Shown one piece after another: positions 1,795-45,753 of a stretch of DNA of 64,000 nt. The notes beneath the pieces are model-generated. The model did not search any database and had not been told where the DNA came from. It saw only the letters and a program-made list of their open reading frames with translations. A program made the translations under genes and the position numbers. The first letter of the stretch is position 1, and the number at the start of each line of letters is the position of its first letter. Source of the stretch: Hyaloperonospora brassicae (Eukaryota > Oomycota > Peronosporomycetes > Peronosporales > Peronosporaceae); NCBI GenBank assembly GCA_947650285.1, contig CANTFL010000323.1:1-64000 (forward strand), given 5' to 3'.

Positions 1795-1990
1795 AGAGGC
1801 CGCAAAAGCTGATGCGCTGTTCGCACGTTGCGTCTAATGTAACGGACCGCCCGTTCTGTCGGTCACCCGTGCGCCAAGCGGCTTCTTGACTTGTTGCTCA
1901 GCGGTGGACCTCTGTTCGCCCCACGCTCGAATCGGCGTCGACGGTCGACAGAGAGAGGGGGCCAGACACCCAAAGACCGACCGACTGACC

Positions 1991-2095
1991 GATTGACCGA
2001 TCGACTGACTTATTGACCGTCCGATCGACTGACTTATTGACCGTCCGATCGACTGACTTATTGACCGTCCGAGTGACTGATTTATTGACCGCTCG
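1991..2095. repeat. 24-bp tandem repeat between the divergent elicitin-like genes
   Basis: Units begin with TTGACCG at 1993 (20 bp, shortened), 2013, 2037 and 2061, each ending in a GACTGACTTA-like segment, with a partial unit from 2085. The three full units are 24 bp long, a multiple of three, which keeps long spurious frames open on both strands (a Ser/Gln/Arg-rich minus-strand frame). It lies about 200-300 bp upstream of the plus-strand elicitin promoter. Confidence 0.8.
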
Positions 2096-2285
2096 CTTGC
2101 TCGCAAGTGCCCTGAGATTCCGTCCAGCGCGAGTAATCGACAGGCGGTATTACACACGGCCCATTGCATCCACTTCAACTGCACGACCGTCTGAACGTCT
2201 GATCGACTGACCGTCTGATCGGCTGGTAAACGCTCCATCGTGACCGACTCTCTCTCTCTCTCTCTCGTTGTCTCTCCCTGACGCT

Positions 2286-2302
2286 CTTCACTTTGCAATC
2301 GA
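2286..2302 (+). promoter_or_regulatory. Oomycete Inr/FPR core promoter of the plus-strand elicitin-like gene
   Basis: TCACTTT at 2288-2294 fits YCAYTYY exactly, followed after one base by CAATC (2296-2300), which matches most of the flanking CAWTTT element. The start A would be at 2290, giving a 5'-UTR of 110 nt that contains a CT microsatellite (2361-2386). A second CT run (about 2249-2267) lies just upstream of the initiator. Assignment rests on the consensus and position only. Confidence 0.65.
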
Positions 2303-2360
2303 AACCCGTCGCGAACGACCACTTTACCACTCGTCTTCTTCGCTCGACTTCGCTCTATTT

Positions 2361-2386
2361 CTCTCTCTCTCTCTCTCTCTCTCTTT
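2361..2386. repeat. CT microsatellite in the 5'-UTR of the elicitin-like gene
   Basis: Thirteen CT units immediately upstream of the start codon region (ATG at 2400). It is pyrimidine-rich, as is usual for leaders of these genes. Confidence 0.85.
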
Positions 2387-2399
2387 CGAAGCTTCTGCC

Positions 2400-3014
2400 A
2401 TGCAGACCCCAACCTGTTCCGTCCTCACTGCAATTGCTGCTACGGTTGCACTTGCCACTGTCTCTGCCGTAGACCCGTGCGACATGGGCGCCATCCAGAG
2501 CCAATTGCTCCCCAACGGTACCACGTGGCACCGCAGCTGCGCGGCCGCTACTGGCGTCGACGTGTTCGCTATGGGCCAATTCCCCACGACCGCCTCGGCC
2601 AAGAACATGACACAGTCGCGCGACTGTGTCAACTATCTGAATCAGCTCAACCAGAAGGCCAATGCACTGATTCAGTGCGAGACGCACGTGGGGAATCAGA
2701 CGATCGTTCTGGCGGAGCTCCTCACGGATCTGCTCATGGGCAAGTCGAGCAATAAGACCGACACGAAAGAACGGACTGCAGCGGACGCGGACAATATGTC
2801 CGGCAGCGCTTCGCTTGCGGCGGAGGAGGAGCCGACGGTCGCGCCCGCCACAGAGAGCCCCAGCGCCGCTTCGGGCTCGAAAGACGCGGTAACGGACCAG
2901 GACGAGCCGAACAGAGGCGCCGAGCGGGGCACGAGCAGTGCGGGCGTGACATTGACGGCCTCACTCGCTGCTGTGGCTGCAGTGGCCGTCACGGTACTCG
3001 CGAGTACGCTCTAG
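2400..3014 (+). CDS. Elicitin-like secreted protein, GPI-anchored
   Basis: A 204-residue protein starting at ATG 2400. An upstream in-frame ATG (2268) would precede the predicted transcription start and encode a CT-repeat-derived Leu/Ser tract, so it was rejected. Residues 1-24 form a signal peptide. The elicitin-type domain (about 26-115) contains four Cys with the same spacing as the gene at 426-947, including Cys-Val-Asn-Tyr-Leu-Asn followed by Cys 17 residues on; the Cys3-Cys6 pair of standard elicitins is absent. An acidic Ala/Ser/Thr/Pro-rich region (about 125-180), expected to be O-glycosylated, leads to a hydrophobic Ala/Val C-terminus fitting a GPI signal. Likely role: cell-surface sterol or lipid binding, by family analogy. 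The two genes are divergent paralogues. Confidence 0.85.
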   Translation: MQTPTCSVLTAIAATVALATVSAVDPCDMGAIQSQLLPNGTTWHRSCAAATGVDVFAMGQFPTTASAKNMTQSRDCVNYLNQLNQKANALIQCETHVGNQTIVLAELLTDLLMGKSSNKTDTKERTAADADNMSGSASLAAEEEPTVAPATESPSAASGSKDAVTDQDEPNRGAERGTSSAGVTLTASLAAVAAVAVTVLASTL

Positions 3015-3863
3015 ACCACTGCGGACGTTGGACGTCGGTCCAATGCGACAAGTGCAACAGTTCTAGTGCTACTGGTGCTAGTGGTGCTACATCCTGAGTG
3101 TAATAGATTCATGAGCAAGTGATTTGACGCAGTTTGCTCTCTTTGACACACTGTGTTTGGGCTCTTTGGTACCTGTTTCGAGTCGTGTTGTGACAGAGTG
3201 TGGTCGATGGTGGAGAAGTAAGTGTCCGAGGTGGCTGTTGGTGGTACAGGAGGTCGGAGTTACCTCAGGATAATGGAGTGAGGCTGTGCTTCTGACTTTG
3301 CGGACGTGACAGGACGACACACGCAGATGTGCTGCTGTCTGGACGCACGTCAGTGGGCAGTTCGTTTGCAAAGAGGTTCGTTGATTGGGCCCAGACGGGT
3401 CGGTGGGTACTGAATCTTTCGAGTGGTCGACGTCCATTTGTGGAAGAGAGCGGGCGTTCCTACCACTTTGACATCTGCCTGAGCTTTGATCGCGCGAGCT
3501 TTTTGGACTTTATTTTAGCGATCATAATAGAGCTGGCGCGGATCGGGGTTAATGCCAGGCGCACCTATCCACGCAGGATACAGCACGACCGTATCTTCCA
3601 AGTTGGTCGATCGTCGTCGTACATTTGTGGCTAAATTTCGCTTACCGTAATTGATTTAGAAAAGAGCTTGCTTGCCTCGATCAAATAAGTCGAGCGAAAT
3701 TACCGGTATTACGACTGCCTCAGTTACAAAGCTCCAGCTTGACTTTGTAGGCGTCGCGATAAATTACGATCACCGGAAAAGATCACGAATAGACCGATCA
3801 TCTTCTTTACCGCATCCATAAAGTGTATCTGTCTGACACAAATTGGTCCTTCACGCCCATCTT
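3015..3863. other. Intergenic region without a recognised gene
   Basis: Short frames occur on both strands (for example plus 3329-3634) but none has a recognisable domain. The last about 50 bases before the hAT element are open in the frame that continues into LINE-1 ORF1 at 7055, so the right edge may be the 5' part of LINE-1. Confidence 0.4.
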
Positions 3864-17177: not shown

Positions 17178-18773
17178 CATGGACGGCAGATGCAGAAGAC
17201 CGTCCTGATGATGATGGCTATCCTCAACACTGTTGCGGTCAAACCTGAGGTGGCGGACATGCACAGTGCAGCAATACTCTTACTCGACTTTCGCAAGGAA
17301 TATGATACTGTTACCAGAGATTTTCTTCCGACTTGACGCTGACGCGGTTTGGATTCTCGCCGGAGTTTCTTCCTATGATTCGGAAGATTCATCACGGGTC
17401 TACAGAACAATTTCTGGTCAAGAGGGAGCTTTCGAGGACACAGGAAGTGCGCTCGCGTATCCGCTAAAGATGCTCGCTGGCTCCTATATTATTCATCATC
17501 GCAGCGGAAGTGCTTGCGCTGGCAATCCATGATGACCCTACTGACCCAGGCATCACCGTTCCACATGGAGGAGGCACTCGACACAAATTATTAGCGTTCG
17601 TCGATGATTCGACTGTCTTTTTACAAGAAGCGAGGCATATTCTATGTGTCCTGCAGATCTTGGGACAGTTTGGCCGTCTGTCGGAACTTTGGATGCAACC
17701 ACGCAAGAGAAATCTTTTTTCTAAACGTGACTGTCCACAGTGAAGAGTTCTGTGGTTATCCAGTGCTTCGTCACGGAGAAACGACGCGGTACTTAAGCTA
17801 CCTAATTGAGACTGGTGAGCTCACGGACGCGAACTGGACAGCGCGCGTACGCAACGTCCAAGGACGTCTTGCCACAGCGACGCAGATTACCACAAGTGTC
17901 GAGATCCGTGTATTAATTCTAAATGTCATCATGCTACCGTCGGTTTTGTTCACAGCAGCGGTGTTTGATCTCCCGGCCTGGGCTGAAAAACAGCTCCGGG
18001 TTCTTTAGAAGCAGTATTTGTGGAAATGCTCGACCAGTACCGACGACACGAGACACAAAGTGAACCCGGCTCTCCTTCACACGCCCAGACAAGCCGGCGG
18101 TGTCGGGCTAGCTTCGATTGTGATCGCATGCGAGACTCAGCGTTGAAAACAAGCTATATTATGGCTTACACAACGCAACGATGTAAACTATTCGGCATGG
18201 CAGGCTTGGTTCTTTGGATGGACTTACGATCCGAGGCCTGCTGTTACATCGCCACTGGACGAACGAACGACTCGGCGGTCTGACCCTCTACAGCACACCG
18301 GAAGATATCTTTTGCAACTGCTACAGCCGTGGCTGGCCTCCAGTCTACCTGATCTCGCAAGCAGGCAGCAAAGGTACATGGAGGATCTTGAAAGTCTGGC
18401 TTCGACAGCCATCAGCTGGACTACATCGGCGTAATGGGTCGTAGAGCTTTCACGGTCACTTACCCGCTGTTTCCGAGCGATGATGGATGAAGATCAAGCC
18501 TTCTGGCCCACGTACTCCTGGGCTGATAACCCTTGGAATTTTAGATCGACGGGGAGACCCTCTGACCGCCATAAAGTATGACCGAATTCGGCCTTGCTAC
18601 ATCGAGGAGCTGGGCCTGTAGAGAACCGGAGTCCACACCTACTCCATAGTCATCCCCTCGGTCGATCACAGAACCCATCAACAGGCCAAGCTGCGTCGCT
18701 AGGAAGTTGCGATACTGCTGAGTGCGCCACATATGACAGTCGGGGCCAGCCTCCACGTTCAGCGACCCCTGCT
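17178..18773 (+). pseudogene. LINE-1 RT, continuation between Copia and Gypsy-1
   Basis: The RT resumes with His-Gly-Arg-Gln-Met-Gln-Lys-Thr-Val-Leu-Met-Met and Ala-Ala-Ile-Leu-Leu-Leu-Asp-Phe-Arg-Lys-Glu-Tyr-Asp-Thr-Val (catalytic block A; 17145-17336). After a frameshift the active-site block reads Leu-Leu-Ala-Phe-Val-Asp-Asp-Ser-Thr-Val-Phe-Leu (17510-17743), keeping both Asp. Downstream, 17604-18008 gives the thumb region and about 18000-18110 encodes the Asn-Pro-Ala-Leu-Leu-His-Thr-Pro-Arg-Gln-Ala-Gly-Gly-Val-Gly-Leu block common after LINE RTs. At least four frame changes are visible. The piece ends at CTGCT (18769-18773), the target duplication of Gypsy-1. Confidence 0.75.
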
Positions 18774-19164
18774 TGTAACGGGGCACACCCTTGCGTGAAC
18801 TTAACGCAAGGGTTTCGGTGCCCCGACAGACGTACACGTGGCAAGCGAGGAAGCGTAGGCAAGGTAAAAGCAGAACTGTTATATTAATATAATCAAGTCT
18901 TTAAACTACTGTCTCTCTGTTTGACTTCACTTAATTATCTTAATATAACTGAGTGTATGGTGACGTCTCGTCACCACTCATTGCGCGCGTCTTGCAGCGA
19001 TTGGTGGGTTGATATCATCAAGATATAAACCAATGAACAGACTCTTTGGTCGACCCTTCAATATCACCACTTTGGTGATATTGTTCAAAGAATATTCAAA
19101 TTCATATTCTTTATTGTCACTTTCCTTAAAGTGACAATTCCATGTAACGGGCTGCCCCGTTACA
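18774..19164 (-). repeat. Gypsy-1 3' LTR
   Basis: 391 bp. Ends are an 11-bp inverted repeat TGTAACGGGGC/GCCCCGTTACA, here with a G at the position where the other LTR has A. It contains nested hairpins: GGGGCAC closing over a 10-bp stem (CCCTTGCGTG-type), and an 11-bp arm hairpin at 19059-19083. Confidence 0.95.
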
Positions 19165-19165
19165 T

Positions 19166-19180
19166 CACCCCCCCCCTCTT
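19166..19180 (-). other. Gypsy-1 polypurine tract
   Basis: On the minus strand AAGAGGGGGGGGGTG lies one base before the 3' LTR, the expected primer for plus-strand DNA synthesis. Confidence 0.8.
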
Positions 19181-19312
19181 AACTGATAGTCACCGTGTGA
19201 CTATCGAAAATATGGCGGCCACCCGTTGGCCACCATTGGGACAGGGAGCACTTGTTGGGTCCGTTCCATTCACTTTTCACCCGACCTCGCATAGATAACA
19301 TGTCTATGCGAG

Positions 19313-20908
19313 GTGACATCAAGACCTACACAGCCCGGTGCTGTGCCAGCCTCTGCGGCAGGCGATTCGTCGTCTTCTGTTCCTTCTTTGCCTAAAGCAA
19401 CAGGTGCTGCAGGTTCACGCGGCACCTCACCGCGTGCGCATGATGACCTCGACGTAGAGGTCATCTACTCTGGCGAGTCAGACGTGTCTGACTCGGGCAA
19501 TGCGCCAGAGGCGTCTCGCTCACCGTCGACGCCTCAGTGTTTGCCAAGGCCACTGCCGAACGAACGGACTCGTGATTTGCATCACAATCTGTTCGGCAGT
19601 GATGACGATGAGCAGGGCGGTGAGGAATATTATTCCTTACCACCACCGGCTCGTGCGTCTTCGCACGAGCGTGATGACGATGGCGCGAGCCGTCGTCAAT
19701 CTGGGAGCCGTGGTACCGACAAGGGTACCACTGTGAAGCGTGATGAGTTGAAGCCGTGGCGTTTGCCCGAACGGCTCATCAATAGCTTGTCTCACGAGAC
19801 AAGCCAACACCATCGAATACCCGTATTCGATGCAACTGAGCTTCACGGCTTGCGTTCCAGCGCGAAGAACTTTCGCGGTGAAGAAGATTTTTATCTCGAT
19901 GTCTTTCTTAGACATCTATGGTACAACAGCAACCAAAAGCGTGACAAAGCATCGCTTTTGGCTGCGTGGAACGCGTTCGTCCAAAACGTAAAGAATTTTG
20001 GACGAGAAGGGTGGCTCAAGAAACTTGAGGCGACACGCCTCAGGTTCGAAAGGCGAACGCCAACCGGTGCTAGGTACCGGTTGCACTGTTTATCGAGTGA
20101 GGCAGGCATTCCTTGACTCACATGGGGAGACCCCTGTGCGAGTTGTGTTGACAACTCGCAGCGTGCACATAGGGATGTGTACTCCCTAAATTCGCCCTGG
20201 GGAAGGGCACACATCTCGGCTGAGATGCGTGACGCGATTGCAAACTTGCAATCCGTCTACAAGCGCCTAGGGCGCGTGTTTACCGATGGGCCACAGGACT
20301 CATCGGATGGGTCTCGTCATACTGGCGGACGAGACCTTCAACATCCATCAACAGCTGAGAGCGGGGCTCCCAGCTGTTCCAAGAGGGTGGATACCCCCGC
20401 CACTGGACGAGGTGGCTCGTCCTTGATCCTGAATCGTCACGGTGATTCAAGATACGCTCCACTAGAAAGCGTTGATCACCGTGAGCATCCACCAAAGGAT
20501 GTGGTGGAGGAGGAAAGACCTCCTCCAGATGATTCGGTTCACCATCTCGACCCTTACGAGATGGATCGCGCAATCGATGAATTGCGCGATGACTTGAAGC
20601 ACGAGAGCGACCGGCGCTACGCTTTGACTGATACCGTGCGGAAGAACCGCAAGGATCACGAGGCTGATCGGGCGAGGGATCGCGCCGATTATGCCACAGC
20701 GTAGCTTCAGGTCGAGCGGGATGTCCGCTTCCTATTCGGCGAGCTGGCGACAGCTCGCGGGGAGATATCTCGGTTGAGCTCCGAGGTATCTTATCTGCGC
20801 GACCAGACGGATCGTCTGTAGCGCGAACGCAAGAACTTGATGGATGTTCTTGAACGTGGGGGCTATATTCATCGGAAGAAGAAGGCTCGTATCGACGGTA
20901 CGGTCTGA
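19313..20908 (+). pseudogene. Antisense reading frame of Gypsy-1, unknown function, 532 codons with three internal stops
   Basis: One plus-strand frame runs from 19313 (GTG, perhaps a decayed ATG) to TGA 20906-20908, interrupted only by TGA 20114-20116, TAG 20702-20704 and TAG 20819-20821. The predicted protein has a Ser/Ala/Pro-rich acidic N-terminus (about residues 1-140), a folded-looking middle (about 145-265: Trp-Arg-Leu-Pro-Glu-Arg-Leu-Ile-Asn-Ser-Leu-Ser-His-Glu and a Trp/Phe/Leu-rich block), an acidic/polar linker, and a C-terminal coiled coil (about 410-505) ending in a Lys-rich tail. Positions 20280-20908 overlap the linker and chromodomain of pol on the other strand. I know no function. 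I recall similar predicted proteins as repeated families in oomycetes, which is unverified. Confidence 0.6.
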
Positions 20909-23900
20909 GTCGCCCCACGTAAAACGTAGGATGCGCGCGCATCCTACGTGGCAATTCGATCGTGTATGCATTGCCCTTGCGATGCAACACTCGAAATGGC
21001 CCAATGTATTTCGGCAGTAGTAAACTACTGCCGACACTAGTGACTGCATGTCCAGGTAAGTTTACCGTAGACAGTAGTACTAGGTCATTAACTTTAAATG
21101 AAAGAACATTTGCTCTTCCATTCTTGTCTGCGTTCCGTTTCTGACGGTCCACCGCATTTGCGATGGAGTCCTGAACGAAAAGGACTACCGCCTCTCGAGT
21201 CAGCAGGAAGTTCTCTGTTGACTCTTTGTTTTGCCTTTCAGTGCGCTTCGTGCGCACTGCTAAGAGATTGTTCTCTTCTTCAGCGAGGTTGTCTTCTTCC
21301 TCGCTGGAATAATCGTTGACGATGCTGAATATCCCAGCATCGTCATCATCATCCGAGTCAGTAATAGCGTCGTCGCTATTATTGAGATGATCTTCTTCAT
21401 CGATGTCGACTTGATCGACATCGGCATCATACGTGACGACGTTAGCGTCGACACGTGATGAGCAAGAGCCAAAACGGTTTTTGCTCGAGCGAGTCCCTCC
21501 CCCCTTATCCAAGAGTCACACTCTATAAGGGCGGGCACACGTGGATGGCGTAGGCCATTCACGTAAAACGGTGTGTGCTGTGTTGAGGCATGCACCGAAT
21601 TATTGATGGCGAATTCCACCATGGGTAGGAATTCGCTCCAACTCGAAAACGAGTGGACATATCCTCGAAGGATCTATTCGAGGACACGATTCGCACGTTC
21701 CGTCTGACCATCTGTTTCGGGATGGTCAGAAGTGGACATCGCCAACCGTGTTCCGAGAGAACGGAACACGGATTGCCAAAGTTCCACCGTGAATCGAGGG
21801 TCACGGTCGGATACGAGTTCACGGGGTAACCCGTGGAGTCTAAAGACAGTGTCGAGAAAGACACGAGCACAACCTTGAGCCTTGATCGACTCGGGTACAG
21901 CAGCAAGATGGACCATCTTGCTGAATCGGTCAACAAACACAAGAATACCATTATTCTTGTGAGCGTCTTCGGGAAAACCGAAGACGAAGTCCATTGAAAC
22001 GGACTACCAGCACTCTGCTGGAACAGGCAGAGGTTGCAATGGTGCACGGGATGAAGGACTAGGCTTCACCCGCTGACAAACCTCGCAATCACGTATGTAC
22101 TTGCGGACAAACTGATACTGGCGTGGCTAGTAAAAGTCACGACTTACCGTGAGGTAAGTCTTTTCTCTCCCACGATGGCCGCTTGTTGGGGCATCGTGAC
22201 AATCGTACATGATGCGTAAACGCATATCATCATGAGCGGGTACGACGACACGAGGCGTGTCGCCGGCAACAGCTGTATAATACAGCAACCCGTTGCGTGT
22301 CGTATACCGATCCGATGAGGATCGGTACAAAGCCGGTAAATCTTTCAATGATTTACTGGATGGATTCAACAGATGATCCATCAATCGCAGAAGATCTTTA
22401 TCTTCTGCGTATGCCTTTCGTACGTCGTCAAGTAAGCTTGACGACGGAACACTGGCTGTCAGTGTCGCAACAGTGGGCTTATCCTCACTGTTGAATTGTG
22501 CGACCGGCTCGAAATCGGGCCGGCGCGAAAGCGCATCAGCGACGACGTTTAGTCGTCCTGGTTTATACTCCACGGAGGAGTTATACTCCGCGAAGAAAGA
22601 CAGCCACCTCGCCATCCTTTGCGAGAGGTGTGGGCTGTTTACGGCCGTGCGTAGTGACGCATGGTCCGTATAGACAACAAACGGTCTATCTCCCAAGAGA
22701 TAGACGCGAAACTTAGCCAGTGCGTACTTCATGGCAAGGAGTTCCTTGTCATGCACTTGGTATTTGCGCTCAGCTGCCTGCAGCTGACGCGACTGATAAC
22801 AGATGACGCGCTCTGCGCCATCTGCATCGAATTGCATTAAAGCACAGCCGATTGCAAAATCGCTGGCGTCACAGACCACATCAAATGGCCTGTCCTGATC
22901 TGCAATCGCCAAGGTCGGCGACTGCATCAAGCTCCGCTTGATACCTTCAAAGGAACGCTGGCACTCAGCGTTCCATGACCACTTGACATTTTTCTTGAGC
23001 AAGCAAGAAAGATGAACAGTCATCTCGGCGTAGTTGCGCGAGTACTTGGGTAAGTACGCTGCTAGCTCAAGGAATTTCTATAGTCCCTTGACATCGACTG
23101 GCACTGGCCAGTCGGTGATCGCCTTGATCTTCTCGGGATCAGGGCGTACGCCGTGTTTACCCACGATGCACCCAAGAAGTGGTATTTCGCTAGCCGCGTA
23201 TATACACTTCTTGAGGTTGGCGTACAACTTATGCTTCTGCTTAAGCTGAATAACCTAAAGAATGTGTCTTCTGATGAATTGTAACGTCCGTCTTTCCTTC
23301 TATAATCTGGCAATGAACGAACACATCGTCAAAGTAACTCGGTGCGAAATCCCGCACCGGTCTCAACAGATTTGTGACACATCTGTTGAATGTTGCAGGG
23401 GCGTTGCTCAGCCCCTGTGGCATCACTAGCCACTCCCACAGCATCCCGCTGGGGGTATTCACTGCCGTGAACGGGATGTCCCGTTCACGCATGAGGATCT
23501 GATAGAATCCATCCATCAGATCCATGGACGAAAAGATGGTACTCTTTGACATACCATCTAGGATTACGTCCTTCCTCGGTATCGGCGTCTGAGCCGGTAC
23601 CGTTGCAGCATTCAACTTGTTGAATGCGTGCACTATCCGCCACCCTCCTGTGGCCTTTCGCACACAGAAGGTCGGAGAGCTGTGAGGGGATGTTGATTCT
23701 CTCACATGGCCCGCTGCTAAGCGATCGGCAAAGAACTTGTCGATCGCTAGTACTTGTTCACGAGGCAGTGGCCACTGCTTCATGACACAGTACTTCGAGC
23801 CCGGTTTGAGATCGATCTCGTGTCGAGTGCCTTTGTCCTTAGGCAACTCGCAAGGTACTGATTCAGGGAATACATCCCTGAATTCGATCAAATCCTTATA

Positions 23901-25189
23901 CAAAGGATTTGCCTGAAGTGACTCCCAGGATTGAGACGTGTATCGCTCAATCCGAGTCTTCTCATCGAGGACACTTTCGTCCATCGATGAGCTGCTGAGA
24001 ACCCTCTTGGTCTCAGCAAATACTGTTGCCGAACGAATACCGGCCACATACTCATCCTCCGTGACGAGTATGCAGATCTGCTTGACTTTGCCACTACGCA
24101 TATCACGCAAGAACCGTTTCGGTTCTAGCGTTGGCAACTGAGTTATCTCCGAAGTTAACTTCGGAGGCACAATCAGATCAAGCGTATAATCGCCTACGCT
24201 TGATCCGTCATTAACCAAGACGTTCAACGTCTCGGTTTCTTCCCGGGAACTTGCTTCCACAGGTTGCTGAGGGCCTGATCCCTCAGCAAGTGACTCTTGA
24301 GGAATTACTTCCTCAAGTACGTGGGGACTTATTCCCTCGACGTCTTCTGACTGTGGCTGTGCAACCACAGTCAGGCACCGATCCTCTACGGTCGACTCTC
24401 CAGTCGACCTAGGATTTCCATGTTGCCCCTTGGAGGCAACAGGTTTCTTTTGTCTAAGATGCTGCCCGCTAGGCATGCATCCATGTCCCGGTCCACTCGA
24501 CTTATTCGAGTGGTGGACCTTCGGCGCTGCCTGTACTTCTGTACAGCCGCCGGGAGCTTGCTCCACAGTGTAGTGATTAACTACACTGTGATCTTGTGCA
24601 GTCGTGCTAACGACCGTACCGAAAGTGAGGCCATCGCACTCACTCGCAGAACATCCACACGCTTGTGGACGCTCCAAGATGTTCATCAGATGGCCATCTG
24701 ATGAACAAGCAGCAGTCATCTTCACGGATCGATGCTGCCAGCTCACCTTTGGCTCGTACTTTCTGATCCAAGGTAATCCCAGGATGACATCAAACTTGTC
24801 ATCCAGATCCAGTACGATGAAGTCACCATCGTACTGTTCGCCCTCTAACGTGTAGTGGATTCCTACTACACGTTTCTCAACGGTTATCGATGCGCCTGTT
24901 GCAAGGCGCACCGTCATCCTTGTGAGGGGAATGTCGCGCTCAACGAACTTGAGCCTACGACCCTCTGGTGACTGGCATCGAACAACTTTGTTCGACGCCC
25001 CACAGTACACTAGGGCACGAAGCGACAAATCATTTGTCGCTTCCAACTTCAAGGTGATGAGCGAAACGTCATCACCAGGTGCAGAGACACACAATGATTG
25101 TGTATCTGGAGCAACTTTCGTCAAGAGATTTGCAAATTCTCTTGAGGTTGCTGGATTAGTAGGGCGCTCCGCCCCTACTAACCCCGACC
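20280..25189 (-). pseudogene. Gypsy-1 pol (protease, RT, RNase H, integrase, chromodomain), several lesions
   Basis: Pol opens in the -1 frame from the gag end. Protease: Ala-Leu-Val-Tyr-Cys-Gly-Ala-Ser, where the catalytic Asp is replaced by Tyr (GAC to TAC). The pepsin-like flap and Ile-Leu-Gly-Leu-Pro-Trp are kept. RT has Tyr-Phe-Asp-Asp near 23330. RNase H (23023-22127) has Asp-Ala-Ser-Asp, Glu-Leu-Leu-Ala and Tyr-Thr-Asp-His-Ala-Ser. Integrase has the His-Cys finger, Met-Asp-Phe-Val, Ser-Asp-Arg-Asp-Pro-Arg-Phe and a Glu in the third block. After an acidic insert and Gly-Arg-Leu-Arg-Pro-Tyr, a linker leads to a C-terminal chromodomain (about 20282-20480; [18 protein letters not shown]). 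Lesions: frameshifts near 23250 and 21510-21530; stops at 23078, 22127, 22004 and 21674. Confidence 0.9.
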
Positions 25190-25196
25190 ATTTTTT
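25156..25196 (-). promoter_or_regulatory. -1 programmed ribosomal frameshift signal between gag and pol
   Basis: On the minus strand, codons TCA AAA AAT contain the slippery heptamer A AAA AAT (25196-25190). After an 8-nt spacer (25189-25182) comes a 9-bp stem, TTAGTAGGG/CCCTACTAA (25181-25173 with 25164-25156), enclosing 8 nt. Gag ends 8-10 nt past the heptamer at TAG, and the -1 frame is open straight into the protease. This is the standard heptamer-spacer-stem layout for retroelement gag-pol frameshifting. Confidence 0.75.
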
Positions 25197-26329
25197 GATG
25201 GCCCGTCTCGCTGTTGCGGCTTCGCAACAGCGCTGGACCCACGCCCATTGCCCTTTCTGGCAAAAGGTCGTCCATTTCGCTCAGTACTGTTTGGTACTGG
25301 GCGTGGAGCACTACACTCGTATGCGTAGTGCCCTAACTTCTGACAGCGATTGCACTTCTGCAATCGCTTGATGTTCGAAGAGCGAGGTCTCTCGCTCTCA
25401 ACATAGCAGAGGTCCATTGGTTCTGGACCTCCGATCTCTTGTCGTCTCGGTGGACGATAAGAGTTTGAGCTAGCATGAGCCTGTCTCATGCTTAAGTCTT
25501 CCTGTTCCGCGGCTGATATCGCATCTTCCAGCGTATTCAGCTCAAGGCGGAACCGATGGCTCGTGACGGGCCCTCCTGTGAGCCCTTGCATGAACACCGT
25601 AATCAACGTGTGTTCATGTACTGGGTTAGCAGTTATACTACTCGCGAGGAGTCGTATATGTTGTGCGTAAGCGTGCACATCACGCTTACCCTGCTTGAGT
25701 TTCAGGAGCTCTGAACGAGCCCTGAACTCAGCCCGTGGCGGCTCAAACGTTTGTCTGAGCCGGAAGTTGAAGTCATCTAGCGACCTAAACTCGTTTGGGT
25801 CGCTACTCTCGAGTCCCAGGGACCAAGTTTTGGCACGCCCTGCCAAGTGGGTTTGAGCAAATGTGAGTTTCATTTGCTCATCTTCGACGCGACGAGACCT
25901 TAGGGCTCTGTCGAGTTCGACAAACCATAGTAACAGGGAGTCCTCCGGGACTCCACTGTACTTGGAGATGTCAACTTTCATGACTTCGGGACGACGCGCA
26001 TGCGCCGTCCCGCCCACAGCAGCATGGAATTGCTGCTGTCTCAACAGCTCTGTCTGTTGAGCACCGAGTTCTCTCAACTGCTCGGCCTGTTGAGAGCCTT
26101 GCTGGTGAAGCAAGGCTACTTTTTCCCTTTCGGCGACAAGTTCATTTTGAATGAACTTGGCTATAGCGGCATGTTGTTGGTCTCTGTCTAGAGACTCCAA
26201 CATGGCGCTAATGGCGAGTTCGCCTACGGTAGAACTCATTCGTTCTACCGCACCCCATTCGATGTCACTCAAATGGGTAAACCCTTCACGCGTGGTGTGA
26301 AAGGTCTCTTCATCATCCAACATGTTCAT
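25178..26329 (-). CDS. Gypsy-1 Gag, intact
   Basis: 383 residues from ATG 26327-26329 to TAG 25178-25180. The N-terminal third is rich in Gln/Glu/Leu with heptad character (about residues 50-100) and probably forms a coiled coil. The retrotransposon gag core follows (about 115-270; Leu-Leu-Trp-Phe-Val-Glu-Leu-Asp-Arg-Ala-Leu, then Leu-Ala-Gly-Arg-Ala-Lys-Thr-Trp). The C-terminal part is basic and carries one zinc knuckle, Cys-Asn-Arg-Cys-Gln-Lys-Leu-Gly-His-Tyr-Ala-Tyr-Glu-Cys (about 330-343). It would form the particle and bind the element RNA. This is the only full-length transposon protein in the window without visible damage. Confidence 0.9.
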   Translation of the reverse strand: MNMLDDEETFHTTREGFTHLSDIEWGAVERMSSTVGELAISAMLESLDRDQQHAAIAKFIQNELVAEREKVALLHQQGSQQAEQLRELGAQQTELLRQQQFHAAVGGTAHARRPEVMKVDISKYSGVPEDSLLLWFVELDRALRSRRVEDEQMKLTFAQTHLAGRAKTWSLGLESSDPNEFRSLDDFNFRLRQTFEPPRAEFRARSELLKLKQGKRDVHAYAQHIRLLASSITANPVHEHTLITVFMQGLTGGPVTSHRFRLELNTLEDAISAAEQEDLSMRQAHASSNSYRPPRRQEIGGPEPMDLCYVESERPRSSNIKRLQKCNRCQKLGHYAYECSAPRPVPNSTERNGRPFARKGNGRGSSAVAKPQQRDGPSKNGRG

Positions 26330-26354
26330 GTTGGATGTTGTGGTCCTTGGAAGG

Positions 26355-26371
26355 ACTACAAAGTGCTACCA
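26355..26371 (-). promoter_or_regulatory. Gypsy-1 candidate primer-binding site
   Basis: Two bases after the 5' LTR the minus strand starts TGGTAGCACT. TGG is the complement of the universal tRNA CCA end. I cannot name the tRNA. Confidence 0.5.
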
Positions 26372-26373
26372 GG

Positions 26374-26764
26374 TGTAACGGGGCACACCCTTGCGTGAAC
26401 TTAACGCAAGGGTTTCGGTGCCCCGACAGACGTACACGTGGCAAGCGAGGAAGCGTAGGCAAGGTAAAAGCAGAACTGTTATATTAATATAATCAAGTCT
26501 TTAAACTACTGTCTCTCTGTTTGACTTCACTTAATTATCTTAATATAACTGAGTGTATGGTGACGTCTCGTCACCACTCATTGCGCGCGTCTTGCGGCGA
26601 TTGGTGGGTTGATATCATCAAGATATCAACCAATGAACAGACTCTTTGGTCGACCCTTCAATATCACCACTTTGGTGATATTGTTCAAAGAATATTCAAA
26701 TTCATATTCTTTATTGTCACTTTCCTTAAAGTGACAATTCCATGTAACGAGCTGCCCCGTTACA
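26374..26764 (-). repeat. Gypsy-1 5' LTR
   Basis: 391 bp, differing from the 3' LTR at three positions. Here a 10-bp hairpin GGTTGATATC/GATATCAACC is perfect, while the 3' LTR has one mismatch in it. Target duplication CTGCT follows at 26765-26769. Confidence 0.95.
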
Positions 26765-26769
26765 CTGCT

Positions 26770-42875: not shown

Positions 42876-45753
42876 GAGTCGGCGACAAAGTTTCAGACGG
42901 TCAACGGAGAAGTCGCTAGTGCTGGTAGTACGATGGTACAGTTCCGCTTTCCGTCTCTCCAGCCTTCGACCATAATCACGCACAAGTTCGAAATTCTGGA
43001 TCAGAGCCAGGATGCCATGGTGATCGGTCGTGATATCCTGAATGAACTAGGAATCGTGCTCAATTTTAAAGACAAACTGGTTCAGTGGGATGGTCACTAT
43101 ACACATTTAAACACCGGCGGGTCATCGTCTCCCAACGCAAGTGATTATGAATTCCCCGAAGAGAGCAAAGAAGTCGATAACACTGCAGTGCGACCAGAAG
43201 ACCTCATGCCAGACAGGCTATCCAAGCCACTCGTCGGCAAATATCTCCAGCTTCTTCGTGATAACGAGCATCTCTATGACGGTCACTTGGGGAGGATGAG
43301 ATTCGAAGACTACGCTCTACCAATAGTGCCGGAGTACAAGCCTGTACACGCAAAACCGTATCCAGTCCCAAGAAGCCTCGAAAACAAGGCTCGAGAGCTC
43401 ATCCAGCATTTGGTCAGCATCGACGTGCTGGAGCAGATTTTTGATTCAGAAATGGCATCGCCTGCTTTTTTCTCAAGAAGCCCAACGGATCACTTCGTCT
43501 ACTGATAGATTTTCGCGGACTTAACCGATATCTGAAACGCAGCCCTTATTACGTCCCACGTATACGCGAGATCCTGTTGCGTCTCGCAGGAGCCAAGTAT
43601 CTGTCAACATTCGATGCTAACATGGGGTATTACGCGCGTCGCCTTGCTGCCTCAAGCCGTGGTCACACAGCTTTCTGTCTTCCGTTCGGGAAGTATCAAT
43701 ACAAGCGACTCCCAATGGGCATTTCTACAGCACCGGACGAATACCAAGCCTGCATGGAGAAGATTTTTGGCGATCTGGCTTTTGTGGTAGTCTATTTGGA
43801 TGATATACTCGTCTACTCCGATAGTGAAGAGACGCACCTAGAGCACCTACACATTGTGTTCAAGCGACTAACCAAGTATGGGGTAACTCTCAACGGAAAG
43901 AAGTGCCACATCCTCAGACAGTCCGTCGACTATCTCGGCTTTACGCTGACATCTCAAGGGATCCAGCCCCAACAAAAGAAGATTCAAGCCATCCAACAAA
44001 TTTCCGTCCCCAAAACCAGGAAGGAACTACGCCGCTTCCTCGGAATGATTAATTACTATAGAGATATGGTACCCAACAAGACGGCATTGTGCCAACCTCT
44101 CAACCGATTCACCAGCTCCAAAGTCCCGTTCGACTGGTTGTCTAGCGACACGGAAGCATTTCACGCTATCCAGAAAGCGTTTGCCCAAGCCGTACTGCTC
44201 GCGTTTCCTGACTTTGAGCAACCATTTCACGTCTACGCCGATGCCAGCGGAAAGCAAATCGGTGGCATCATTATGCAGAAGAACAAGATTCTCGCCTGCT
44301 ATTCCCGAAGTCTCAACAAGCATCAAGTGAATTACACAACGATGGAGCTTGAGCTACTCTCTAGCGTTGAAATGCTGCGCGAATACCGCACCATGCTGCT
44401 CGGGTTCCCTGTGGTTGCTCACACCGACCATAAGAACCTAATTTATCCGACCGAAACCAGCCTGCGCGTTAAGCGCTGGAAGCTCCTGTTGGCTGAGTAC
44501 AGGCTATCGATGCATTACATCAAGGGAACCAAGAATGTTGGTGCTGATGCGTTTTCCCGGATGAGATTCGATGCGATTAACACGAAGACTCATTTGCAGC
44601 TCGCGGACGAGATATGCGCTACCGCTGATGAACCAGATTGTGTCATGCATGGTCGGTTCTTCGCGAACATCAAGATAAGGACTTGATGATTCAAAAAATC
44701 AAGACAGCTTGCCTCAACGGCAACAACAATCCTGACTATCAGCTTCTACCTCTACTCGGCTGCACGCTGGTCGCGTACCACAAGCGCGTCATCGTGCCCG
44801 ATAGCTTGCGAGAAGATCTCATTCGTTGGTATCACTTAACGCTCAGTCACCCTGGCGGTGAACGACAGTACAAGACAATGAGGCAGGTTCTCTACTGGCC
44901 CGGAATGGAAGCCGCGATCACCAAGAATGCGAAAGATTGTCTAACTTGCAAGAAGGCAAAGGTCCACGGAGGCAAGCAGGACTATGGATTACTACCACCA
45001 CGAACACTCAAGACGGTGAACCCCTTTGACACCGTTCATGTCGATCTCATTGGTCCCTACGAAGACGGACACTACGGTATTACCATGATTGACCATGCGA
45101 CGCGTTGGCTGGAAGTGGGTATTCAGCACGACAAAACTTCGCTGACCACAGCCGAAAGCTTCGATCGTGAATGGCTGTGCCGCTACCCGCGTCCTGTAAC
45201 GGTTATACACGACCTAGGAACGGAATTCACTGGTGACGAGTTTCAAGAATTGCTCCGCAGCTACGGGATACAAGCCAAGCCTATAACAAGCAAGAACCCT
45301 CAAGCTAACGCTATTTGTGAACGCGTTCACCTCGAGATTTTAAATGTCATCAGGTGCCACGATGGCGCTGACTGGAAGAAAACCATTCACTACGCTGCAT
45401 TCGCCGTGCGAGCAAGCTACCACAGCATTCTTAATGCTTCCCCAGGTCAACTACTCTTCGGTCACGATATGATCACTCGTCAGCTTTATAACGCCAACTG
45501 GAGCTATCTATCGAAGCGTCGTTTTGATGCAATTCTCGCCGACAATGACCGCGAGAATAGCAAACGCCTCGAGCATTTCTACAATACGGGAGACCACGTG
45601 ATGTTACGCGTCCCCAAGAAGTTCCGTGCAAAATTGCACGCAGTGGCAACCGGACCTTTTGTTATCCGCCAAGTTCACAGCAACGGCACTGTGACCATCG
45701 ACAAGGGAGCAATGGCAGAACGTGTGAGCATCCGCCGCATTTTTCCGTGCTAA
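42876..45753 (+). pseudogene. Gypsy-2 pol (protease remnant, RT, RNase H, integrase)
   Basis: Protease C-terminal half (Val-Ile-Gly-Arg-Asp-Ile-Leu-Asn-Glu-Leu-Gly-Ile) without its active site. RT begins in the 42816-43505 frame (Tyr-Lys-Pro-Val-His-Ala-Lys-Pro-Tyr) and after a frame change at about 43500 continues through 43577-44686, with Tyr-Leu-Asp-Asp-Ile-Leu-Val-Tyr-Ser, then RNase H (Ala-Asp-Ala-Ser-Gly, Thr-Met-Glu-Leu-Glu-Leu, His-Thr-Asp-His-Lys-Asn). A second frame change at about 44640-44690 leads to the integrase (44638-45753): finger His-(x)3-4-His...Cys-Leu-Thr-Cys, core Val-Asp-Leu-Ile-Gly, His-Asp-Leu-Gly-Thr-Glu-Phe, Pro-Gln-Ala-Asn-Ala-Ile-Cys-Glu. All catalytic acids of RT and integrase are present. 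No chromodomain. Confidence 0.88.

What the first reader, a model, noticed from the sequence alone, without database searches (positions are those of the whole stretch)
18774..26764. A retrotransposon tiled end to end with short perfect hairpins
Seen directly: perfect inverted repeats at 19059-19083 (11-bp arms), 19284-19314 (12), 19442-19465 (9), 19474-19495 (10), 20565-20590 (10), 20924-20949 (13, no spacer), 22386-22409 (10), 22423-22446 (10), 23466-23489 (11), 23608-23627 (9), 23861-23883 (9), 23889-23911 (9), 24147-24166 (10, no spacer), 24347-24374 (10), 24564-24590 (11), 24680-24707 (14, no spacer), 25156-25181 (9) and 26314-26337 (11), with spacers of 0-8 nt. Random 8 kb should give roughly 0.3 such repeats with arms of 9 or more (simple 4^-9 estimate). 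They lie in LTRs, gag, pol and the antisense frame, with many 6-8 bp ones between. I do not see this in Copia, Gypsy-2 or the LINEs here. Possible causes: selection for RNA structure (packaging, RNAi escape), or template switching by the RT that makes one arm copy the other.
Basis: partly seen in the sequence, partly recalled or inferred. Interest (0 to 1): 0.92.

Follow-up and report, generated by a model that had tools for sequence, protein, structure and literature searches.

The report
Retrotransposon tiled with conserved small hairpins
A jumping gene of a downy-mildew-like oomycete is filled from end to end with more than a hundred short, perfectly matched hairpins that evolution appears to be preserving, perhaps to stop its two strands from pairing and triggering RNA silencing.

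Summary
All 18 listed hairpins are exact. The element holds 62 perfect inverted repeats with arms of 9 or more and loops of 10 or less; dinucleotide shuffles average 0.38, and the other 56 kb of the window hold 7. The coding pieces hold 41 against 0.69 in codon-preserving shuffles. In 200 kb sampled elsewhere, such repeats are 55 times denser in stretches of this family than outside.

It is a Ty3/Gypsy LTR retrotransposon with a chromodomain, read on the minus strand, with further ORFs on the plus strand. Hairpins recur in subfamilies whose gag is about 70% identical, with compensatory changes. In the cleanest test, third codon positions inside stems are frozen while loops vary like the rest; several other comparisons show no effect. 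I read this as selection rather than RT template switching: among LTR copies 0 of 1561 stem cells differ on both sides.

Stems are strand-symmetric: unlike rRNA, G-U is not preferred over A-C. Best guess: hairpins that keep complementary strands from annealing and so limit silencing. That mechanism is untested.

The parts
18774..26764 (-). whole Ty3/Gypsy LTR retrotransposon, coding strand minus, hairpins throughout
   Evidence: LTRs, TSD, Pfam domains; 62 perfect IRs of arm >=9 (all listed)
18769..18773 (.). target-site duplication CTGCT, left
   Evidence: (flanks)
26765..26769 (.). target-site duplication CTGCT, right
18774..19164 (-). 3' LTR (left), TGTAAC...GTTACA
   Evidence: 3 mismatches in 390 compared with the other LTR
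26374..26764 (-). 5' LTR (right)
26358..26371 (-). probable primer binding site TGGTAGCACTTTGT, next to the 5' LTR
   Evidence: sequence; identification as PBS is from general knowledge of LTR elements
19168..19180 (-). probable polypurine tract AAGAGGGGGGGGG next to the 3' LTR
   Evidence: sequence; identification from general knowledge
25178..26329 (-). gag ORF, 383 aa (Retrotrans_gag, Ty3_capsid; zinc knuckle below the curated cut-off)
23241..25124 (-). protease and RT piece of pol, 627 aa (RVP_2, RVT_1)
22127..23023 (-). RNase H and integrase zinc-finger piece of pol, 298 aa
21559..22047 (-). pol piece, integrase region by position, no Pfam match
20280..21512 (-). pol C-terminal piece, 410 aa (SH3_Tf2-1, Chromo)
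19313..20116 (+). antisense ORF 1, 267 aa, no Pfam match, relatives in Hyaloperonospora
20177..20704 (+). antisense ORF 2, 175 aa, overlaps the pol 3' end
18787..18813 (.). LTR hairpin, arms 10 (repeated in the other LTR)
19059..19083 (.). LTR hairpin, arms 11
19113..19138 (.). LTR hairpin, arms 11
19284..19314 (.). hairpin, arms 12
19442..19465 (.). hairpin, arms 9
19474..19495 (.). hairpin, arms 10
20565..20590 (.). hairpin, arms 10
20924..20949 (.). palindrome, arms 13
21011..21034 (.). hairpin, arms 11
21317..21345 (.). hairpin, arms 11; one pair compensated and one broken in copy L025
21901..21923 (.). hairpin, arms 11
22386..22409 (.). hairpin, arms 10
22423..22446 (.). hairpin, arms 10; one pair compensated in L034
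23466..23489 (.). hairpin, arms 11
23608..23627 (.). hairpin, arms 9
23861..23883 (.). hairpin, arms 9
23889..23911 (.). hairpin, arms 9
24147..24166 (.). palindrome, arms 10
24176..24205 (.). hairpin, arms 11; one pair compensated in L010
24264..24289 (.). hairpin, arms 10, one pair compensated in L025, none broken
24347..24374 (.). hairpin, arms 10
24564..24590 (.). hairpin, arms 11
24680..24707 (.). palindrome, arms 14
25019..25043 (.). hairpin, arms 12, one pair compensated and two broken in L032
25156..25181 (.). hairpin, arms 9; a pair that is T-A here is C-G in L034, L042, L046 and L032
25472..25492 (.). gag hairpin, arms 8, two pairs compensated in L032, none broken
26314..26337 (.). 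gag hairpin, arms 11

Best explanation
This is a lineage of ambisense Ty3/Gypsy retrotransposons whose whole sequence, LTRs and both coding strands, has been shaped by selection into a string of more than a hundred discrete Watson-Crick hairpins, mostly of 7-11 bp. Shown: the hairpins, their concentration in this family, covariation, constraint on stems in the cleanest test, symmetry between strands. Inferred: because both strands of the sequence fold equally well, what is selected is that neither strand of the element stays open. The most likely use is to keep complementary strands (sense and antisense transcripts, or RNA and cDNA) from annealing into long duplexes, which would feed Dicer-type silencing; the single hairpins are short for Dicer substrates (general knowledge). 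RNA phages face the same annealing problem, and folding of the strands helps there.
For: Density: 62 IRs against 0.38 in shuffles, 41 against 0.69 in codon shuffles, 4.47 against 0.08 per kb in the genome sample. Maintenance: window-copy stem pairs in 12 gag copies of other clades are 74.7% Watson-Crick against 20-28% at slid partners, with 222 double-changed WC cells against 39-89 (related copies count repeatedly); clade-shared A to B changes: 28 doubles where 11.1 are expected, 21 of them WC, p=7.8e-6. Constraint with stems defined elsewhere: clade-B stems, third codon positions among the four A copies 0/79 against 36/223 outside (p=1e-5), loops 6/35; clade-C stems 2/60 against 37/252 (p=0.016); L032 stems, window copy against L034, 14/298 against 131/1249 (p=0.0013), loops 18/104. 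Window-defined stems among L034, L010, L042, L046: fourfold sites 10/288 against 76/656 (pairs of copies, not independent). Symmetry: WC+GU and WC+AC rules give nearly the same counts in four copies, while E. coli rRNA shows excess for GU only (3.96 against 0.00 per kb at 7 or more) and MS2 and Qbeta, which copy both strands as RNA, show both. Folding z: sense -3.81, antisense -3.75. Mizuuchi et al. 2020 (PMC6913131; abstract and passages read) describe intramolecular structure hindering dsRNA formation in Qbeta replicons. Longest perfect arm 14 bp.
Against: No transcript, small-RNA or structure-probing data. A full-length antisense transcript is assumed. The ambisense sister family L033 has only weak structure (z -1.42/-1.77), so ambisense layout alone does not demand hairpins. 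Spacing is random and 44 of 113 gaps between hairpins exceed 50 nt. G+C is lower in loops (0.448) but not outside hairpins (0.521 against 0.514 in stems), so the 'fewer unpaired G and C' rule is only partly met. Longer imperfect inverted repeats exist: five pairs of 21-24 nt arms, 74-90% complementary. Constraint tests without effect: A-defined stems among B (p=0.25) and among C and D (p=0.62), B-defined among C (p=1), C-defined among B (p=0.53); L018- and L025-defined stems, window copy against L034 (p=0.28, 0.32). Against it: L018-defined non-coding stems varied more than outside (22/191 against 95/1822), and in the coding part nearest the left LTR (20280 to about 20774) stems varied as much as outside among eight copies (159/3136 against 479/9539), fourfold sites even more (47/700 against 62/1748).
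Confidence: 0.42

Rival explanations
1. Selection on the sense genomic RNA alone: hairpins fold the genome for packaging by Gag, for stability, or to hide target sites from small RNAs (genome-scale ordered RNA structure).
For: Sense RNA folds far below shuffles (z -3.81); stems conserved and loops free in the cleaner tests; GU exceeds AC just outside the stems in the window copy (positions 2-4 outward: 57 against 24) and within its stems of 9 or more (66 against 47 non-WC pairs).
Against: GU(sense) is not preferred over AC elsewhere: clade-shared gag states 27 GU, 49 AC, 70 other; A to B 6 against 16, p=0.052; stems of 9 or more in L034 50 against 47, L031 43 against 54, L032 47 against 79. 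rRNA under the same test shows GU only. Arms share no words, and the loops of 4-6 nt listed show no common word by eye.
Confidence: 0.22
2. A DNA-stage role: hairpins in single-stranded cDNA during reverse transcription, or cruciforms in the integrated copy.
For: Perfect Watson-Crick, strand-symmetric stems; hairpins in the LTRs as well as in genes; clade-shared AC(sense), which is G-T in the minus-strand cDNA, is commoner than GU (49 against 27).
Against: Arms of 7-11 bp are short for stable cruciforms, and hairpins usually hinder RT (general knowledge); I know of no need for a folded cDNA.
Confidence: 0.16
3. A mutational process: the element's RT folds back on its own product and copies one arm into the other, so hairpins arise and stay perfect without being useful.
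For: Would be family-specific, strand-symmetric, motif-free and would give perfect stems and double changes; quasipalindrome template switching is described for E. coli (PMC7202029, listing with start of abstract seen). L034 has four double changes to WC pairs against 48 single ones.
Against: Unbiased copying should not slow third-position change (0/79 against 36/223) and should spread double changes freely in the non-coding LTR: 0 of 1561 cells; LTR stems differ at 35/3661 sites, outside 219/6419, loops 55/805 (pairs of eight copies). Pairing beyond the stem ends is at random level apart from a small excess at the second position. In the largely decayed B copies stems vary about as much as the rest (89/422 against 177/721), so the post-insertion mutation rate is not clearly lower there.
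Confidence: 0.13
4. Chance, base composition, low complexity or an inserted repeated hairpin unit.
For: None found.
Against: Dinucleotide and codon shuffles; no 8-mer shared between arms of different hairpins outside the LTRs, 0 of 181; repeats of arm 7 or more number 8-23 in each of the 16 gag regions compared.
Confidence: 0.01

Closest known systems
Ty3/Gypsy (Metaviridae) elements with a chromodomain; here the sister family L033 of the same genome
   Same: gag, protease, RT, RNase H, integrase and chromodomain in the same order on one strand, plus an ORF on the other strand at the 3' end
   Different: L033 (LTRs 100% identical over 477 bp, 1510-aa open pol) has 5 IRs of arm >=8 in 9 kb; three whole or near-whole copies of this family (L031, L032, L034) have 56-87 in 8.8-8.9 kb, and two older, partial ones (L018, L025) 24 and 32 in 10 kb; L033's folding z is -1.4 to -1.8 against -3.8
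[quoted passage not shown]
   Same: structure along the whole genome including genes; linked there to evasion of innate sensing of RNA
RNA phages MS2 and Qbeta and Qbeta replicons (PMC6913131, abstract and passages read)
   Same: both strands fold below shuffles; stem excess under both GU and AC rules; structure hinders duplex formation between template and product
   Different: perfect stems of 7 or more: excess of 13.7 per kb here against 3.0 in Qbeta and 1.6 in MS2; no RNA-to-RNA copying is known for an LTR element (general knowledge)
Quasipalindrome template-switch mutation (PMC7202029, listing with start of abstract seen)
   Same: can make imperfect inverted repeats perfect (recalled)
   Different: does not predict frozen third codon positions or the absence of double changes in the LTR

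Membership tests
Ty3/Gypsy LTR retrotransposon | LTRs with TG...CA ends and a short target-site duplication | tested here: met
   LTRs TGTAAC...GTTACA, 3 mismatches in 390, CTGCT on both sides
Ty3/Gypsy LTR retrotransposon | gag - protease - RT - RNase H - integrase order | tested here: met
   Pfam in the order given on the minus strand; integrase only by part of its zinc-binding domain in the window, the core by position; sister L033 has an rve match just below the cut-off
Ty3/Gypsy LTR retrotransposon | intact reading frames | tested here: not met
   pol of this copy is in four ORF pieces, not all in one frame; this is decay of one copy, others have a 1339-aa open frame
Chromodomain-bearing Gypsy (chromovirus) | C-terminal chromodomain | tested here: met
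   PF00385 E=1.6e-11 in 20280-21512
Chromodomain-bearing Gypsy (chromovirus) | place in an RT family tree | not tested
   no tree was built
GORS | folding energy along the genome below sequence-order controls | tested here: met
   mean z -3.81 sense, 87% of 79 windows below -2
GORS | single-stranded RNA genome of a persistent virus | tested here: not met
   it is an LTR retroelement by its parts
Multiple dispersed packaging signals | common motif in loops or stems | tested here: not met
   0 shared 8-mers between arms outside the LTRs; loops of 4-6 nt listed show no common word by eye, no statistical motif search was run
miRNA or hairpin-siRNA precursor | stem of about 20 bp or more | tested here: not met
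   longest perfect arm 14 bp; five imperfect pairs of 21-24 nt exist; Rfam scan of the window 0 matches
RNA-phage-like strand separation by structure | both complementary strands strongly and equally structured | tested here: met
RNA-phage-like strand separation by structure | reduced duplex formation between complementary strands | not testable with these tools
   needs a bench assay

The most novel reading that the evidence does not exclude
A retrotransposon lineage has recoded its whole genome into strand-symmetric hairpins as armour against duplex formation and RNA silencing, while keeping its proteins; a sister family shows an earlier, weaker stage, so the build-up of the armour could be traced.
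Probability: 0.35. Interest if true: 0.95.

Novelty: new variant of a known kind. Interest (0 to 1): 0.85.

Why it matters
Perfect-hairpin density here is well above what the same test finds in rRNA, MS2 and Qbeta, equal on both strands, and in part demonstrably under selection. In the listings of ten searches of open-licence papers (listings capped, most papers not opened) I saw none that describes such an LTR retrotransposon. It would be a natural, very abundant test case for whether a mobile element can escape RNA silencing by folding, and a strong example of synonymous sites under structural selection.

Tried and rejected
Chance, composition and inserted hairpin units were rejected by shuffles and by the lack of shared words. 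Regular spacing was tested and rejected. Stem identity against outside in direct comparisons with the window copy (0.841 against 0.701 in gag) was set aside because choosing hairpins in one of the two sequences by itself halves the expected divergence; L034 against L032 by codon position was set aside for a like reason. Stems defined in another clade were kept as the main evidence. A sense-strand wobble excess was looked for and, apart from the window copy's own small excess, not found. The antisense ORF as the cause of the hairpins was weakened by the hairpin-poor ambisense sister. The literature searches gave no paper on such an element; passages of a review on RNA phages (PMC6071253) did not bear on duplex avoidance.
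Full report
What is there. The stretch 18774-26764 is a complete LTR retrotransposon: LTRs of 391 bp with 3 mismatches in the 390 compared, TGTAAC...GTTACA ends, and CTGCT on both flanks. It is coded on the minus strand: gag (26329-25178), protease/RT (25124-23241), RNase H and integrase zinc finger (23023-22127), and a chromodomain at the end of pol (21512-20280). pol of this copy is broken into ORF pieces that are not all in one frame. On the plus strand, at the 3' end of the element, lie two more ORFs (19313-20116, 20177-20704) without Pfam match; the first is 69% identical to its counterpart in copy L032 and 86% in L034 over the parts aligned, and has a 78% relative in Hyaloperonospora brassicae. 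Where the gag search names an organism among its 120 listed hits it is Peronospora matthiolae, so the host is very probably a downy mildew, though no record names it.

The hairpins. All 18 claimed repeats are exact. Counting every perfect inverted repeat with loop 0-10, the element has 151, 119, 91, 62, 38 and 15 with arms of at least 6, 7, 8, 9, 10 and 11; means of 60 dinucleotide shuffles are 18, 4.9, 1.4, 0.38, 0.12 and 0.07. Loops peak at 4-5 nt and the excess is gone beyond about 16; arms are common up to 11, with four of 12-14. Pairing beyond the ends of the stems is at about random level, with a small excess (0.38 and 0.40) at the second position out. Codon-preserving shuffles of the coding pieces give 0.69 repeats of arm 9 or more against 41 observed. 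Hairpins are spread evenly over LTRs, genes and non-coding parts, with random spacing and no words in common between arms outside the LTRs. Besides these, five longer imperfect pairs (arms 21-24 nt, 74-90% complementary) were listed among the 25 shown of 104.

Where else. Twenty 10-kb stretches at round positions in six large contigs were read. Repeats of arm 9 or more occur at 4.47 per kb in the 16.3 kb that match this element at 75% or better and at 0.082 per kb in the other 183.7 kb; outside the matches, two 1-kb bins hold three repeats of arm 8 or more, both in L018, which also carries an old copy. The family is large: first looks list 1,858 to 3,146 candidate places, of which only 40 were scored. 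A related family with identical LTRs and an open pol (L033), about 64% identical in DNA over part of pol, has 5 repeats of arm 8 or more in 9 kb, where L031, L032 and L034 have 78, 56 and 87; yet it folds somewhat below shuffles (z -1.4 and -1.8) and has 48 stems of 6 or more where 14.5 are expected. So the trait is weak there and very strong here. Two other stretches with mildly low z (L023:1-2000, L029:2000-7000) were not identified.

Are the hairpins kept? gag was read in 16 copies that fall into clades A (with the window copy), B, C and a single D; A and B are about 70% identical, B and C about 84-88% (L033's gag had no usable DNA match and was left out). Each of the 16 has 8-23 repeats of arm 7 or more in about 1.3 kb. 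At stem pairs defined in the window copy, 12 copies of the other clades form Watson-Crick pairs in 74.7% of 2182 cells against 20-28% when the partner is slid by 1-4 bases; cells changed on both sides to another Watson-Crick pair number 222 against 39-89. Counting only states shared by most copies of a clade, A to B gives 21 compensated pairs, 7 doubles that do not pair, 39 single changes and 136 unchanged; 11.1 doubles are expected by chance, 28 were seen, and 21 of 28 pair (p=7.8e-6). Between the closer clades B and C only one pair is compensated in either direction, against 9 to 12 single changes. To avoid the bias of picking stems in one of the sequences compared, stems were defined in one clade and variation counted in another. 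Stems from B: third codon positions vary among the four A copies at 0 of 79 sites, outside at 36 of 223 (p=1e-5), loops 6 of 35; stems from C: 2 of 60 against 37 of 252 (p=0.016). Stems from L032: window copy against L034, 14 of 298 against 131 of 1249 (p=0.0013), loops 18 of 104. Tests that showed nothing: A-defined among B (p=0.25) and among C and D (p=0.62), B-defined among C (p=1), C-defined among B (p=0.53), and L018- and L025-defined for the window copy against L034 (p=0.28 and 0.32). Results against: L018-defined non-coding stems vary more than the rest (22/191 against 95/1822), and in the coding part nearest the left LTR stems vary as much as outside among eight copies, fourfold sites more (47/700 against 62/1748), while LTR stems of the same copies vary less (35/3661 against 219/6419 outside and 55/805 in loops; pairs of copies, not independent). 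In B and C few variable sites are shared by two or more copies, as expected for changes after insertion, so those comparisons have little power for selection.

Which strand? A structure needed in one RNA strand tolerates G-U there and not A-C. In four copies the two rules give nearly the same number of stems (for arms of 7 or more 170/163, 155/164, 127/130, 154/147); the same count in E. coli rRNA gives an excess of 3.96 per kb for G-U and none for A-C, while MS2 and Qbeta, which make both strands as RNA, show both. Clade-shared exceptions in gag are 27 G-U, 49 A-C and 70 others, counted per pair and clade, so related clades count twice. A G-U excess in the window copy (66 against 47 non-WC pairs in stems of 9 or more) is nearly absent in L034 (50 against 47) and reversed in L031 (43 against 54) and L032 (47 against 79). 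Folding energies agree: z -3.81 sense and -3.75 antisense.

Mechanism. Shown: a strand-symmetric, covarying set of hairpins concentrated in this family, with constrained stems in the tests that have power. Inferred: that selection acts on folding of both strands. The simplest reason is to keep complementary strands apart, as argued for Qbeta replicons (PMC6913131, abstract and passages read). Phytophthora species have a small-RNA class tied to transposable elements, with 25/26-nt RNAs at most feature types, and a 21-nt class tied to inverted repeats (PMC3804510, passages read), so an element with many copies and ORFs on both strands plausibly has a duplex problem. This step is untested, and a sense-RNA role, a DNA-stage role and RT copying between arms remain as rivals with the weights given.

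Novelty. The element is a Ty3/Gypsy element of a known kind; the whole-length hairpin dress was not seen described for such an element in the capped listings of ten searches of open-licence papers.

Noticed in passing
L031 (G000:C631:65800-74600): Chimeric copy: its gag region is 73% identical to the window copy and falls in gag clade B, while pol and 3' LTR are 91-95% identical to it; its two LTRs are only 82% alike over 304 bp, so the family seems to recombine between subfamilies.
   Followed up: partly
window 19313-20704 (+) and L033:1424-2725 (+): ORFs on the strand opposite to gag-pol at the 3' end in both families; the window's first one shows no detectable similarity to L033's. L033's has relatives in Hyaloperonospora, Peronospora, Albugo and Phytophthora ramorum; the window's first one matches a Hyaloperonospora arabidopsidis protein named core-binding (CB) domain-containing.
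   Followed up: partly
LTRs of L032 against the window copy: The left part of the LTR does not align between these subfamilies, yet each version carries its own strong hairpins.
   Followed up: partly
G000, RNase H domain hits: More than 100 of 150 scored hits share the same 122.4-bit score and many lie in a 1339-aa open frame: probably a recent, very uniform burst.
   Followed up: no
L023:1-2000 and L029:2000-7000: Mildly low folding z (-2.2 to -0.8 per kb) outside this family; ORFs listed but not identified.
   Followed up: partly
window 43466-45666 (+): Another Gypsy-type pol, 20-34% identical to the pol proteins used as queries, with little sign of hairpin enrichment (z -0.3, -1.1, -0.3 per kb).
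   Followed up: partly
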